From positions 1-52,130 of the forward strand of contig JAFUPA010000033.1 in NCBI GenBank assembly GCA_017481575.1: a stretch of 52,130 nucleotides of DNA, given 5' to 3'. Source of the DNA: Clostridia bacterium. GTDB lineage: Bacteria > Bacillota > Clostridia > Oscillospirales > Acutalibacteraceae. A program made the position numbers and the translations under genes. Shown here piece after piece: positions 41,536 through 45,202 of the stretch; positions within the stretch are counted from its first letter, which is position 1, and each line of letters begins with the position of its first letter. The notes under the pieces were generated by a model. That model had not been told where the DNA came from. It did no database searches and worked only from the letters and a program-made list of their open reading frames with translations.

Positions 41536-41606
41536 GTTTTCTCGTTGACAGTAAAAAATTGATGTGGTATTATTTTTACATAAACAATACAGAAAGAAGC
41601 TTTATA

Positions 41607-42458
41607 ATGAACGCATCTAAATTCAACAAGCTTATTACAAATGTGCTTGCACCGATTTTTAGGTGCAAATATCTGCCGTGCATTCACATTGTAAAACTTT
41701 TCAATAAGCCGTCAGAGGTTATCTCAATCGCAGGCAAGGGTGTGGATACACCGGACGACCCGATTTATATGACTGCACACCGTGGTGTAACTTCAATCGC
41801 ACCCGAAAATACCATTCCTGCTTACGAAGAGGCTGTAAGGCTCGGCTATTACTCCGCAGAGTGCGACATTCACCGCACAAAGGACGGGGTATGGGTTTTG
41901 ATTCACAACGATACTGTTGACAAGTATTTTTGTGAGTACGGCGAGATAAAGGAAGCTGATTTTGAAGACGTGAGAAAGTACAGCTTCAAAGGTGGCTCAA
42001 ACTTCTGGGCTTATGACGATTTAAAAATCCCGACACTTGATGAATTTCTCGATGTTTTTGTCGGCTCAAACACAAGACCGCAGATTGAAATTAAAGCATA
42101 AACCTACGATACCCTCAAAGAGGTTGTTGATGCTGTTGAGAAAAAGGGTCTTGAAGAAAGTGCAATTGTCATTTCCTTTGACCTTCAGCAGTTGAGAGAA
42201 ATTCACAAGCTTAACGATAAAATTGAGTTGTGGTATCTTGTCGGCAGAGTTACCGAGGAGAATATCGCAGAAGCAAAGTCAATTTCGGACAAGGTGTGGC
42301 TGTCTGCTCATTTTGACCAGAACGACAAACGCACAATTCAGCTTGCACTCGACCGTGGAATTGATGTTTCGTACTGGACAGTCAATACAATCGAAGATGC
42401 AAAAATGGTCTATGACCTGGGCGTAAGATATATCGAGACGGATATTCTTGCGAAATAA
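41607..42458 (+). pseudogene. Glycerophosphodiester phosphodiesterase, in-frame stop
   Basis: The first part (165 codons from ATG 41607, AGAAAGAAG upstream) holds the GDPD signature: HRGVTSIAPENT, ECDIHRTKDGVWVLIHND with its metal and catalytic residues, and QIEIKA. A TAA at 42099-42101 then interrupts the frame. Reading through it continues the same frame without any gap for 118 codons (TYDTLKEVVDAVEKKG to IETDILAK), giving the second half of the TIM barrel. A single base change (for example AAA or CAA to TAA) explains it. The enzyme would hydrolyse glycerophosphodiesters to glycerol-3-phosphate; the truncated product lacks half the barrel and should be inactive. A sequencing error is possible. 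Confidence 0.85.
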
Positions 42459-42474
42459 GATTTGAGGTGATTTT

Positions 42475-42846
42475 ATGGCTAAAGCAAAAGTCAAAAAAGC
42501 TGAAACCAAAGAGAAAAAGGAAATCAGTCAGGAAACATATTCCAAGGCTGTCTTGCTCACAGGTTTTGTTGCAAGCATAAAGAATGAACTGGCAAAAGCC
42601 GAAAAAGTTTCTGCTGTTCGTTTTGTGCCGATACTTGACGGCTATCAGGTCTTTTTCAACAACGACGGCAAGGATACCAAAATCAGCATAGAGAAAAGCA
42701 AATTTTCCAAAGGCTATAAAGTCCGCAAGCTTGAGGACGGTTTTAAGAAGAAAGCTTTATCCGTAAAAAGCGAAGAAGACCTTGAACCTGCAATCGCAAA
42801 GCTTTTCAACAAGCCCACAGAGAAACGCAAGAAAAAAGCGAAGTAA
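42475..42846 (+). CDS. Lysine-rich protein of unknown function
   Basis: 123 residues, strongly basic at both ends (AKAKVKKAETKEKKE and KPTEKRKKKAK), with a central folded-looking part (AVRFVPILDGYQVFFNNDGK). It may bind nucleic acid, but this is only inferred from charge. GAGGTGAT gives excellent initiation. It lies 16 bases after the GDPD frame, so is probably in its transcript, and a terminator follows. Confidence 0.65.
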   Translation: MAKAKVKKAETKEKKEISQETYSKAVLLTGFVASIKNELAKAEKVSAVRFVPILDGYQVFFNNDGKDTKISIEKSKFSKGYKVRKLEDGFKKKALSVKSEEDLEPAIAKLFNKPTEKRKKKAK

Positions 42847-42861
42847 GATACAAACACAAAC

Positions 42862-42894
42862 GCCATCGGTCACCCGATGGCATTGTTGTTTTTT
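42862..42894 (+). terminator. Terminator
   Basis: GCCATCGG / CCGATGGC with loop TCAC, then a T-rich tract ending in six T residues. Confidence 0.88.
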
Positions 42895-43285
42895 AGCCTT
42901 CCCCTCGAGGGGAAGGGGGACCGCTTGCGGTGGATGAGGTGGAAACATATCTTAAAATATCAGCACATACTCCATCAAAATTACTGTTTATGTCATAATT
43001 TGAATATCGCAAAACAGTAAGTCCTAATCCTTTTAAATAATTGTCTCTTTTAATGTCTTTTGCTTTTCCGGCATCTTCGTAATGCTGTGAACCGTCAATT
43101 TCAATTACCAAGTTTGTACTTGCACAGTAAAAATCAACAATGTAACTTCCAATCACTTTTTGACGGTTAAAGGTGATTGGTTGATTTTTTAAGAAATCAT
43201 ACCAAAGATGTCGTTCCTCTTTAGTCATATTTTTACGAAGATTTTGGGAGTTATTTGTCAGTTTAGAATTTGCCCTTTCGTTCAT
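42893..43285 (-). CDS. DUF559 (Vsr-like) endonuclease-domain protein
   Basis: 130 residues. LRKNMTKEERHLWYDFLKN, then FNRQKVIGSYIVDFYCASTN, LVIEIDGSQHYE and GLTVLRYSNYDI match the DUF559/PF04480 fold, a PD-(D/E)XK-type nuclease related to very-short-patch repair enzymes; the Asp of VDFYC, and the Glu and Asp of IEIDGSQH, would be the active site. The gene begins at the inner edge of one palindromic repeat, whose GATGAGGTG provides its ribosome-binding site, and its last 15 or so codons (TASGPPSPRGEG) run into the other. It appears to be cargo of, or the driver for, a repeat-bounded unit. DNA cleavage is inferred from family only. Confidence 0.85.
   Translation of the reverse strand: MNERANSKLTNNSQNLRKNMTKEERHLWYDFLKNQPITFNRQKVIGSYIVDFYCASTNLVIEIDGSQHYEDAGKAKDIKRDNYLKGLGLTVLRYSNYDINSNFDGVCADILRYVSTSSTASGPPSPRGEG
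42898..42938. repeat. Left palindromic repeat of the DUF559 unit
   Basis: Reading inward (plus strand): CTTCCCCTCGAGGGGAAG (18-bp perfect palindrome), then a small hairpin CCGC-TT-GCGG, then GATGAGGTG. It encodes the C-terminus of the DUF559 protein on the minus strand. Confidence 0.85.
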
Positions 43286-43288
43286 CTA

Positions 43289-43342
43289 AACACCTCATCA
43301 GTCACTTCGTGACAGCTTCCCCTCGAGGGGAAGCCTTTTTTG
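43289..43342. repeat. Right palindromic repeat of the DUF559 unit
   Basis: Reading inward (minus strand): CTTCCCCTCGAGGGGAAG, then hairpin GTCAC-GAA-GTGAC, then GATGAGGTG. The order equals that of the left copy but inverted, and the small hairpin has a different sequence with the same fold. On the plus strand the palindrome extends to GGC..GCC and is followed by T6, so it can also act as a terminator. Confidence 0.85.
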
Positions 43343-43350
43343 CAAGCTTT

Positions 43351-43827
43351 TTATTCTTCCGTCAGCCTTACAGTAAAATCAAAAGGAAAGGTTTTAACGG
43401 ATTTATTTTCGAAATCTATTTTGTAACCTGTTCCGTCTTTATGAAAAAATCCTGCTTTTGGCTCAATCCTGACATAACACATTGTTTCCTCTTTTTCGTT
43501 GTTATGTTCAAAATACCATTCGTGGAATACTTTTGTCAAAGTTTCTCTTAAAGCATTGTTTTCCTGCAACAACGGATGTCCGATATTGTGAGCGTATCCG
43601 CAAAACGAATGTACTTTCCTTGAAGAAAGTGCAACATTGGGGTTAGCACGAATCTCTTTTACTTTTTGCGACTTTTCATTACTTACAAAATAAAAATATT
43701 TTCCGTCAAAATAAGTGTCAATAAATCTTACTGATGGAATGTTGTCTTCAGATGTGGCAATCGCAAACTGATAGTCTTTTGAAAAGAGTTCTGACATAAT
43801 TGCTAAAGCTTTATAAAAATCACTCAA
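43351..43827 (-). CDS. Pyridoxamine 5'-phosphate oxidase-like flavin-binding protein
   Basis: 158 residues from a TTG at 43827. The split-barrel FMN-binding fold is seen in QFAIATSEDNIPSVRFIDTY, GKYFYFVSNEKSQKVKEIRANPNVAL, and GHPLLQENNALRETLTK. Family members in Clostridia begin about eight residues before the IMSE(L/R)F helix, which fits the TTG start (L-S-D-F-Y-K); the ATG at 43797 would remove that helix and also lacks a ribosome-binding site. It lies 25 bases after the GH4 gene and may be co-transcribed. The substrate is not known. Confidence 0.82.
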   Translation of the reverse strand: MSDFYKALAIMSELFSKDYQFAIATSEDNIPSVRFIDTYFDGKYFYFVSNEKSQKVKEIRANPNVALSSRKVHSFCGYAHNIGHPLLQENNALRETLTKVFHEWYFEHNNEKEETMCYVRIEPKAGFFHKDGTGYKIDFENKSVKTFPFDFTVRLTEE

Positions 43828-43852
43828 TTGTTTGCGCCCCCGTTTTATCTCA

Positions 43853-45202
43853 TCAATGATACTTCGGCATCCAATCTCCGTGAACTTCGATAAGCTCGTC
43901 AACCATTTTAACAATGTCGTCAATGGAAAGCTCTGAACCTGTGTGCGGGTCGAGCATAGCTGCCTGGTAGATGTGCTCCTTCTTCTTTGTAACTGCTGCT
44001 TCGATTGTGAGAAGCTGCGGGTTGATGTTTGTCATATTCATCGCCGCAAGCTGAACGGGAAGCTTGCCCATATGGCACGGTGTTATACCGCTCGAGTCAA
44101 CAAGACACGGAACCTCAACGCAAGCATCAGCGGGAAGGTTGTCAATAAGACCTGTGTTCAGCACGTTACCGCCGATTTTGTACGGATTGTTTGTAACCAT
44201 AGCTTCCATAATGTAAGAAGCATATTCCTTTGAACGAGTATGTGTAACCTTGCCGTCTGCAAGGATTTCGTCTCTCTGCTTTGCCCAACCTGCAATCTGC
44301 TCAATACAACGGCGGGGATACTCGTCAAGCGGAATGTTGTAGTCTGCGATAAGGTTCGGATACTTGTCCTTTATGTAGAACATATTGTACTCGGAGTTGT
44401 GCTCACTTGACTCTGTGCAGTAATAGCCGAGACGCTTGATGTAATCAAAGCGTACCATATCGCCGTGCTTATCTTCTTTCTTATCTGAAGCAAGAGCCTT
44501 TGCATTGATTTCAAGTGCACGGCGCTTGATTTCGGGGTAAAGGTCGTTGCCCTGCTTGTCGTGGATTTCAAGAAGCCATGCCATATGGTTGATACCTGCT
44601 ATTTTGTCGTATACATTGTCCTCTCCGACTTCTTCAAGCATGCCAACATGGTCGAGCAAATCTCTTGAACAGGTCTGAACGCTGTGGCAAAGACCGACGG
44701 TTTTAATGCCCGAGTATCGTGTCATATAGCCTGAAAGAATTGCCATGGGATTTGTGTAGTTGAGGAACCATGCGTCAGGACAAACCTCGTGCATATCACG
44801 GGCAAAATCCTCAAGCACGGGAATTGTACGCAAGCCACGCATAATTCCGCCGATGCCGAGTGTGTCGGCAATTGTCTGGCGAAGACCGTATTTCTTCGGG
44901 ATTTCAAAGTCTGTTATTGTGCAGGGGTCGTAAAGACCGACCTGAATTGCGTTGACAACAAAGCTTGCTCCCCGAAGCGCATCTTTGCGGTTTTCTACGC
45001 CGAGATATGTTGAAATTTTAGCTCTTGATTCGTTAACGTTTTTATTGATAGCGTTAAGGATGATTTCAGAATCCTCAAGACGCTGCTTGTCAATGTCGTA
45101 AAGTGCAATTTCTGCTTCACGCAGAGCGGGTGTGCACATACAGTCACCGAGAACATTTCTTGCAAAAACGGTGCTGCCTGCACCCATAAATGTGATTTTC
45201 AT
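43853..45202 (-). CDS. GH4 alpha-galactosidase/alpha-glucosidase (MelA-like)
   Basis: 449 residues. GH4 enzymes cleave glycosides by an oxidation-elimination mechanism with NAD+ and Mn2+. The Rossmann motif is at the N-terminus (ITFMGAGSTVFARN), LNYTNPM at 147-153, LCHSVQ with metal ligands Cys172 and His173, and GINHMAWL with His206. The CHSVQ form (rather than CN.P) points to the MelA-type branch acting on unphosphorylated alpha-galactosides or alpha-glucosides; alpha-galacturonidase is another option. ATG 45202 follows AAAGGAGTG; the frame extends to 45379 without support. A perfect consensus promoter lies 46 bases upstream. Confidence 0.9.
   Translation of the reverse strand: MKITFMGAGSTVFARNVLGDCMCTPALREAEIALYDIDKQRLEDSEIILNAINKNVNESRAKISTYLGVENRKDALRGASFVVNAIQVGLYDPCTITDFEIPKKYGLRQTIADTLGIGGIMRGLRTIPVLEDFARDMHEVCPDAWFLNYTNPMAILSGYMTRYSGIKTVGLCHSVQTCSRDLLDHVGMLEEVGEDNVYDKIAGINHMAWLLEIHDKQGNDLYPEIKRRALEINAKALASDKKEDKHGDMVRFDYIKRLGYYCTESSEHNSEYNMFYIKDKYPNLIADYNIPLDEYPRRCIEQIAGWAKQRDEILADGKVTHTRSKEYASYIMEAMVTNNPYKIGGNVLNTGLIDNLPADACVEVPCLVDSSGITPCHMGKLPVQLAAMNMTNINPQLLTIEAAVTKKKEHIYQAAMLDPHTGSELSIDDIVKMVDELIEVHGDWMPKYH

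What the first reader, a model, noticed from the sequence alone, without database searches (positions are those of the whole stretch)
42893..43342. DUF559 nuclease gene boxed by inverted two-hairpin palindromes: a possible REP-like mobile or selfish unit
Seen: both ends read inward as CTTCCCCTCGAGGGGAAG, then a small hairpin, then GATGAGGTG. The small hairpins differ in sequence (CCGC-TT-GCGG versus GTCAC-GAA-GTGAC) but keep the fold, which suggests structure is selected. The right copy's GATGAGGTG is the gene's ribosome-binding site, and the left copy encodes its C-terminus, so gene and repeats are one unit of about 450 bases. Known: REP elements in proteobacteria are moved by RAYT (Y1) transposases associated with flanking REPs. 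Inference: here a Vsr-like PD-(D/E)XK nuclease may play the comparable role, nicking or cutting at the structured ends.
Basis: partly seen in the sequence, partly recalled or inferred. Interest (0 to 1): 0.82.

Follow-up and report, generated by a model that had tools for sequence, protein, structure and literature searches.

The report
Nuclease gene boxed by triplex-forming repeats
A small DNA-cutting-enzyme gene sits between two mirror-image DNA repeats that look able to fold into triple helices, and the same pairing recurs in many bacterial phyla and some archaea, even inside essential genes, which points to an overlooked kind of mobile DNA.

Summary
The 450-bp unit is an intact DUF559 (YcjD-like, Vsr-fold) nuclease gene between two inverted, non-identical repeats, the only two such motifs in the 52-kb window. 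The repeats are not RAYT-type REPs. Each is a hairpin whose purine arm is mirrored by the downstream tail, the layout of intrastrand-triplex (BoxC/PIT) motifs, near which a survey found no mobility genes (PMC4666352). Tails track their own arms. In loci fetched from across prokaryotes, 49 of 71 testable have such motifs on both sides, and density near the gene is about 41 times that beyond 1 kb. Weak family relatives lack them (0 of 30 both-sided). In the genus, four repeat types match four protein clades. Units sit in frame inside HsdR, HsdM, Acs, UvrA, riboflavin synthase and, in two assemblies, the only full leucyl-tRNA synthetase found. The nearest solved relative with a known role is a mobile-intron protein. 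Most likely this is a mobile element whose nuclease acts on its triplex-type ends; cleavage and triplex folding are unproven.

The parts
42897..42941 (+). Left end (3' of the gene): triplex-type repeat; palindrome 42897-42916 (CCTTCCCCTCGAGGGGAAGG), linker with small hairpin 42917-42931, mirror tail GGATGAGGTG 42932-42941
42893..43285 (-). DUF559 / YcjD-like (Vsr-fold) nuclease gene, 130 aa, ATG at 43285; last codons lie in the left repeat
43291..43334 (-). Right end (5' of the gene): triplex-type repeat; palindrome 43315-43334 (GCTTCCCCTCGAGGGGAAGC), linker with small hairpin 43301-43314, mirror tail TGATGAGGTG 43291-43300
43291..43296 (-). GAGGTG, probable Shine-Dalgarno of the nuclease gene, formed by the tail of the right repeat (5 nt before ATG)
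   Evidence: sequence; function inferred
43351..43923 (-). Neighbour gene (pyridoxamine 5'-phosphate oxidase-like), context only; in sister species G013 it is conserved without the DUF559 gene

Best explanation
The unit is a minimal mobile element: one Vsr-fold/EDxHD-like nuclease gene (DUF559, YcjD type) between two inverted, non-identical triplex-type repeats. The nuclease is the dedicated partner of its own repeat type. Proposed mechanism (inferred): when an end is single-stranded or extruded (replication fork, supercoiling) it folds into hairpin plus reverse-Hoogsteen third strand; the nuclease recognises this structure and its flank, nicks or cuts there and at a target, and host repair copies or joins the unit into the new site without a target duplication. 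Gene-less repeats and repeat pairs with similar two ends (BoxC/PIT-like) would be its non-autonomous derivatives. Shown here: the unit, the repeat layout, protein-repeat co-inheritance, and presence at unrelated sites including in-frame insertion into conserved genes. Not shown: triplex folding of these copies, cleavage, ongoing transposition.
For: Association: inverted flank match better than same-locus controls at p<=0.05 in 58 of 77 tested loci (80 fetched); triplex-type motifs on both sides 49, one side 8, none 14 of 71; 3.47/kb near vs 0.085/kb far; 19 of 21 named phyla sampled have a both-sided locus. Specificity: inverted score >=30 in 0 of 30 weak PF04480 relatives vs 10 of 14 YcjD-type genes that were not the reason their genome was chosen. 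Structure: third block fits as mirror better than as direct copy 176 vs 34 of 390 hairpins (rest ties); own arm 5.41 vs swapped arms 3.77 sd 0.08; outermost arm base/tail base G-G 20, C-T 12, 2 others explained by a chance extra pair. Partnership: four repeat types on four protein clades, 4 changes against 14.3 in shuffles (types assigned by eye); blind Mantel rho 0.41, 0 of 2000 permutations. Insertion: DUF559 in frame in a larger ORF in at least 30 of 80 loci (29, L093), 21 of the 29 checked against Pfam or PDB; only full LeuS found in two assemblies carries it; L003, L004 and L054, same type, share outer edges at different sites; G003 has 8 gene-less pairs with closely similar two ends. Enzyme: profile hits 3hrl, then 3r3p 'Mobile intron protein' E=4.6e-6.
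Against: No cleavage, binding or transposition data. Genus member G006 (95% complete) has 18 repeat matches but no DUF559 match; G013 has 2 and none. Only 18 of 31 genus loci beat all 20 shuffles in the simple inverted-match test. Bacteroidota pass the strict finder in 9 of 28. Four of 14 YcjD-type genes fall below the inverted-score cut (L180, L224, L225, L226). G168 and G175 carry DUF559 but have no match to the one repeat pattern. In E. coli the finder sees a motif on the 3' side of ycjD only (L149, L150). Some units are vertically inherited (L039/L050 at one site; HisF fusions in Pedobacter). No target-site duplication was seen. Many loci are metagenome bins. 16 of the 30 weak relatives lie in ORFs of roughly 900 codons or more, where gene ends are far from the domain, so only the 14 in shorter ORFs are a full control.
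Confidence: 0.68

Rival explanations
1. Passenger model: BoxC/PIT-like repeats spread by another process (replication template switching, recombination, an unlinked transposase) and the nuclease gene is a frequent cargo that happens to tolerate being boxed.
For: Repeats occur away from the gene in the same genomes and in G006 without any DUF559 match; single repeats nest inside other repeats without a gene (L004 and L052).
Against: The same gene family is boxed in 19 of 21 named phyla sampled while weak PF04480 relatives are not; repeat type tracks the protein clade, also among genes of one genome.
Confidence: 0.17
2. Regulatory or housekeeping model: the repeats are structured control elements (terminator, ribosome-binding-site masking) of a resident Vsr-like repair nuclease, or the nuclease removes triplexes that block replication.
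For: The right tail fits the ribosome-binding site; Caulobacter VsrA (DUF559) is reported to be functionally linked to a 5mC methyltransferase and to cause a DNA damage response without it (PMC12907096, passages); E. coli ycjD sits at one fixed locus.
Against: Does not explain units at unrelated sites, in-frame units inside LeuS, UvrA and HsdR, gene-less pairs with similar two ends, or repeat-type/protein co-inheritance.
Confidence: 0.09
3. Domain-recruitment model: DUF559 is a functional nuclease domain of restriction enzymes and other hosts, not an insertion.
For: 11 HsdR frames (5 of them checked by Pfam) and 6 HsdM frames (all 6 checked) carry it at a few recurrent positions.
Against: Positions differ, the inserts carry the palindromic repeats, and hosts include LeuS, UvrA and RibE whose solved homologues align on both sides of the insert with few or no residues missing.
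Confidence: 0.03
4. Pure homing-endonuclease model: the nuclease cuts a specific empty site and the unit is copied by homology; the repeats are remnants or cargo.
For: Homology to a mobile-intron protein; a DUF559 gene is assigned to the EDxHD homing family in PMC9403480 (one passage); recurrent insertion points in HsdR and HsdM across phyla.
Against: Same-type units sit at unrelated sites; two different LeuS positions; repeats go with the protein clade.
Confidence: 0.15

Closest known systems
BoxC / PIT elements / intrastrand triplex motif TM (Holder et al. 2015, PMC4666352; abstract, passages and sections 15 and 18 seen)
   Same: Purine-arm hairpin plus mirror third block; in E. coli two linker types that pair up in inverted dimers; wide spread over bacteria.
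   Different: That paper reports 23 E. coli copies, always intergenic, and no transposase or integrase remnants near them; its main text has no 'ycjd' or 'endonuclease'. Here the repeats box a nuclease gene and also occur inside genes, and the window copies have a 14-15-nt linker with its own hairpin.
REP/REPIN with RAYT (GTAG REPs; Di Nocera et al. 2013, PMC3733652, abstract and passages)
   Same: Short palindromic repeats in inverted pairs flanking a gene for a DNA-cleaving enzyme, plus many gene-less copies.
   Different: Enzyme is a PD-(D/E)XK-type (Vsr-like) protein, not an HUH tyrosine transposase; ends carry a mirror tail instead of a GTAG tag.
CGTC REPs (same paper)
   Same: Stated there to lack a dedicated transposase; the linker hairpin of many ends here is flanked by TGG and GACG, which resembles their CCA/CGTC tags on the other strand.
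   Different: No mirror tail is mentioned in the passages seen; CGTCAT-type sites were not systematically at the edges of DUF559 genes.
EDxHD/Vsr-like homing endonucleases (3r3p 'Mobile intron protein'; the name I-Bth0305I is recalled)
   Same: Detectable sequence homology of the nuclease (E=4.6e-6); selfish, insertion into conserved genes.
   Different: No intron or intein splicing part found; unit bounded by palindromic repeats; frame stays open when inside a gene.
Rickettsia palindromic elements (recalled; RPE repeats are mentioned in PMC3733652)
   Same: Palindromic repeats inserted in frame inside protein-coding genes (recalled).
   Different: No nuclease gene of their own is known to me.

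Membership tests
Intrastrand-triplex motif (BoxC/PIT/TM) | Hairpin with purine arm plus third block that mirrors it | tested here: met
   window: 1 and 2 mismatches of 10; mirror over direct 176 vs 34 of 390
Intrastrand-triplex motif (BoxC/PIT/TM) | Folds into a triplex | not testable with these tools
   in vitro triplex is reported for the E. coli motif (PMC4666352), not for these copies
Intrastrand-triplex motif (BoxC/PIT/TM) | Loops of 1-6 nt (search rule of PMC4666352) | tested here: not met
   window linker is 14-15 nt with its own hairpin; short linkers occur in other phyla. So the window copies are filed as a variant layout, not as members under that rule
REP/RAYT (REPtron) | Y1 (HUH) tyrosine transposase gene | tested here: not met
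   only DUF559 and MTES_1575 match
REP/RAYT (REPtron) | GTAG tag at the foot of the palindrome | tested here: not met
   no GTAG in either end
REP/RAYT (REPtron) | Enzyme gene flanked by inverted repeats that also occur dispersed | tested here: met
DUF559 / YcjD (PF04480) | Full-length domain over the curated cut-off | tested here: met
   110.8 bits, cut-off 20.6; E24, D51, E62, D64, H68 invariant in 43 rows
NCBIfam PRK09767 equivalog (DUF559 domain-containing protein) | Score over its cut-off | tested here: not met
   76.5 bits, cut-off 218; a relative, not the equivalog
Homing endonuclease (EDxHD) | Sequence homology to a known member | tested here: met
   3r3p E=4.6e-6 with the family profile
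Homing endonuclease (EDxHD) | Cuts a specific empty allele | not testable with these tools
   needs biochemistry
DDE-type transposon or MITE | Target-site duplication | tested here: not met
   no direct repeat seen at the edges of L003, L004, L054, L055 (by eye, 4 units)
Intein | Self-splicing domain around the nuclease | tested here: not met
   Pfam scans of 17 in-frame host ORFs at E<=1e-5 list no intein domain

The most novel reading that the evidence does not exclude
YcjD-type DUF559 nucleases are the missing mobility factor of BoxC/PIT-like intrastrand-triplex repeats, and together form a previously unrecognised, very widespread class of mobile element in bacteria and archaea: a single Vsr-fold nuclease gene with triplex ends that inserts without target duplication, can sit in frame in essential genes because its ends read as flexible linkers, and sheds gene-less repeat pairs.
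Probability: 0.58. Interest if true: 0.93.

Novelty: categorically new. Interest (0 to 1): 0.88.

Why it matters
BoxC was found in the 1990s, and the survey in PMC4666352 found no mobility genes near its E. coli copies; CGTC REPs likewise lack a known transposase (PMC3733652). If a Vsr-fold nuclease is the partner of such repeats, a common, unnamed gene family gets a function, another enzyme chemistry joins the short-palindrome mobile elements, and a non-B DNA structure becomes a candidate transposon end. In-frame insertion into the only full leucyl-tRNA synthetase gene found in two assemblies is also a striking case of selfish DNA inside an essential protein. It is directly testable with E. 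coli K-12 ycjD and BoxC.

Tried and rejected
CGTC-REP idea: sites beginning CGTCATT or CGTCATC were listed within 1.5 kb of the 80 loci; they were scattered (the clearest REP-like one is 192 bp downstream in L081) and not at the gene edges in general, so the claim that DUF559 serves CGTC REPs was dropped. Rfam: one sub-threshold hit on 42500-43700. Defence-system reading: PADLOC gives only partial matches (DpdF, mREase_II). E. coli as a strain-level empty-site test: 3361 of 5426 genomes have one place covering at least 80% of the sapF-ycjD-fabI stretch; the three others that I opened carry an efflux operon beside sapF (PMC12817139 passages), so it is a locus replacement, not a clean empty site. 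Window empty site: sister G013 keeps the right-hand genes and has only a relic palindrome, but its left neighbour differs, so edges cannot be read there. Phylum-wide PF04480 search: 43 of 149 genomes match but only G000, G086 and G126 have the strong type; most of the rest that came as loci served as controls. Domain recruitment into restriction enzymes was rejected for the reasons given under rivals. That open reading through the repeats is built into the unit was rejected: outside host ORFs 3 of 26 units read through both ends.

Full report
WHAT IS THERE. The unit spans about 42897-43334. Two exact copies of CTTCCCCTCGAGGGGAAG point inward, each followed by a small hairpin and GATGAGGTG; between them lies an intact 130-aa DUF559 gene on the minus strand. 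The right tail fits its ribosome-binding site and the left repeat encodes its last residues. A scan for hairpin-plus-mirror-tail motifs over the whole 52 kb finds these two and nothing else. The inverted flank match reaches 37; 3 of 1999 control intervals reach that.

WHAT THE REPEAT IS. The tail is a mirror copy of the purine arm: arm GAGGGGAAGG, mirror GGAAGGGGAG, tail GGATGAGGTG (1 mismatch if T counts as A; 2 at the other end). That is the layout of an intrastrand purine triplex (G.GC, A.AT, T.AT), described as BoxC, PIT or TM (PMC4666352: abstract, passages, sections 15 and 18). Over 390 purine-arm hairpins near DUF559 in 94 loci the mirror reading beats the direct reading 176 to 34 (rest ties), and a tail fits its own arm (mean 5.41) better than arms of other loci (3.77, sd 0.08, 20 shuffles). 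A palindrome can be counted from both strands in that set, so many entries have no tail. Where a tail motif was found in genus ends, an arm ending in G goes with tail G (20) and in C with tail T (12); the two other cases carry one chance extra pair. The window copies differ from the published search rule (loops 1-6 nt) by a 14-15-nt linker holding its own hairpin; Planctomycete G171 has long-linker motifs in inverted pairs with short-linker ones, and in E. coli the five inverted pairs reported always join the two linker types (PMC4666352).

HOW WIDE. The assembly has four DUF559 genes, all with repeats on both sides when read by eye, in two repeat types; L001 has a compound pair on its 5' side and L004 a nested repeat. 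The palindrome of the window type occurs at 18 places (one with a mismatch), the reversed pattern at none; 15 of the 18 are not beside a DUF559 gene, several of them at contig ends. In the genus, 14 of 18 genomes have DUF559. A second repeat pattern gives 269 matches in the 18 genomes against 3 for the reversed pattern: 3 to 41 in each of the 14 genomes with DUF559, and 18, 2, 0 and 0 in the four without (G006, G013, G016, G017). The inverted flank match exceeded all 20 shuffles in 18 of 31 genus loci (three of the 31 were cut by contig ends; some of the others show repeats). One collection scan with a three-sequence profile gave 80 loci, the best of 570 confirmed. Of 77 with enough flank, 58 had p<=0.05 and 63 p<=0.1 against sliding same-locus controls. 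With the strict finder 49 of 71 have motifs on both sides, 8 on one, 14 on none; density 3.47/kb within 300 bp against 0.085/kb beyond 1 kb. By phylum, 19 of 21 named phyla and the unassigned group have a both-sided locus, including 2 of 2 archaeal loci; Bacteroidota are the weak group, 9 of 28. In 13 of these genomes taken whole, each with 1-5 PF04480 matches, one repeat pattern is present in 11, up to 250 times, reversed control 0.

SPECIFICITY. Weak PF04480 relatives are not boxed: inverted score >=30 in 0 of 30, motif on both sides in 0, on one side in 1. About half of them (16) lie in ORFs of roughly 900 codons or more, where the gene ends are out of reach; the 14 in shorter ORFs are the full control. 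Strong, YcjD-type genes that were not the reason their genome was chosen: 10 of 14 with score >=30, 5 with motifs on both sides, 4 on one (a fifteenth was too short). In the genus the four repeat types fall on four protein clades with the minimum of 4 changes over five labels (shuffled mean 14.3, 0 of 200 as low; 28 rows, labels assigned by eye). A blind test on the same 28 loci, 356 between-genome pairs, gives Spearman 0.41, 0 of 2000 permutations as high. One genome can carry several types, so the unit, not the genome, is what is inherited together.

SIGNS OF MOVEMENT. In 29 of 80 loci translated, and in L093, the DUF559 frame is part of a larger ORF: HsdR, HsdM, DUF1156, Acs, Type ISP enzyme, EPSP synthase/NUDIX, LeuS, UvrA, RibE, Dxr, and four N-terminal HisF fusions. 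I checked 21 of the 29 (17 by Pfam; 4 against PDB); the rest are named by eye. Solved homologues align on both sides of the insert in LeuS twice (template 486/496 and 242/252), UvrA (255/260) and RibE (106/117). In the genomes of L109 and L136 the interrupted gene is the only full LeuS editing-domain match; the second, weak match lies in an 881- or 916-codon ORF that I take to be ValS. UvrA is not the only copy in its genome. At least one insertion breaks its host (L072, HsdR halves in separate ORFs). Insertion points recur in HsdR and HsdM. Units of the same type at different sites share outer edges AGCC..GGCT without a visible target duplication (L003, L004, L054). Single repeats are nested in the L004 end and the L052 palindrome compared with L003 and L044. 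G003 has eight gene-less pairs of about 145 bp (two cut by contig ends, two subfamilies) whose two ends closely resemble those of its DUF559 unit L168, though their similarity to each other runs roughly 40-60 bp beyond the palindromes. Sister G013 lacks the gene and keeps a relic palindrome beside the conserved right-hand neighbours. Against constant movement: L039 and L050 are one site in two species, and HisF fusions are shared among Pedobacter.

ENZYME. Invariant residues in 43 family rows include E24, D51, E62, D64, H68. A family profile finds 3hrl ('Endonuclease-Like Protein', E=2.9e-33) and 3r3p ('Mobile intron protein', E=4.6e-6), then hits at E>=0.12. YcjD was linked to Vsr by HMM in PMC1189080 (passages). 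PMC9403480 assigns a DUF559 gene to the EDxHD homing family (one passage). PMC12308824 reports three repeated segments with a transposase and a DUF559 gene as recombination hotspots (passages). PMC12907096 gives an experimental role to a DUF559 protein, VsrA (passages), so some members may be domesticated.

E. COLI. ycjD lies between sapF and fabI (MG1655 1351407-1351760); 3361 of 5426 genomes hold at least 80% of the stretch in one place. In strains H240 and KE47 (L149, L150) the finder sees a BoxC-type motif about 200 bp from the 3' side of the gene and none on the 5' side, so it looks like a decayed or domesticated unit, but it offers the best laboratory test.

NOVELTY. Searches for DUF559 (14 papers), DUF559 with palindromic (2), REPIN/RAYT/endonuclease (5), ycjD (8), BoxC (8), COG2852 (4), intrastrand triplex (19), EDxHD (3) and the REP phrase with Vsr (0) showed no title, abstract start or read passage that joins this nuclease to these repeats; only open-licence papers were searched, and ten were opened, none in full.

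JUDGEMENT. Association, specificity and in-frame insertion are strong. That the nuclease acts on the ends is the most economical reading but is inference.

Noticed in passing
L111 6375-8648; L086 6738-8813: HsdM genes carry, besides the DUF559 unit, what look like gene-less repeats read in frame (e.g. KRPHPQPLSQRERG, APLPLGE), so the same loops seem to collect several insertions.
   Followed up: partly
window 41559-42458: A glycerophosphodiester phosphodiesterase-like frame (named by eye) left of the unit is split by a stop at 42099-42101 (..IEIKA*TYDTLKE..); ORFs 41559-42101 and 42192-42458 look like one broken gene or a sequencing error.
   Followed up: no
L006-L034 (own genome): Repeat pairs of the opposite, tail-out arrangement lie inside a longer repeat with CAAATTTTAATTTGTCGGG-like ends.
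   Followed up: no
L148 (Neisseria gonorrhoeae record): The DUF559 gene there is flanked by long near-identical repeats in direct, not inverted, orientation (CCCCAACAGCCGACCCGTCC..GGCAACAAGC), read by eye.
   Followed up: no
genus ends, and 88 listings: Linker hairpins of many right ends read TGG-stem-GACG, which on the other strand resembles the CGTC/CCA tags of CGTC REPs.
   Followed up: partly
G000 contigs C1, C19, C41, C67: Four contigs of the window's genome begin within about 80 bases of a repeat, so the repeats seem to break the assembly.
   Followed up: no
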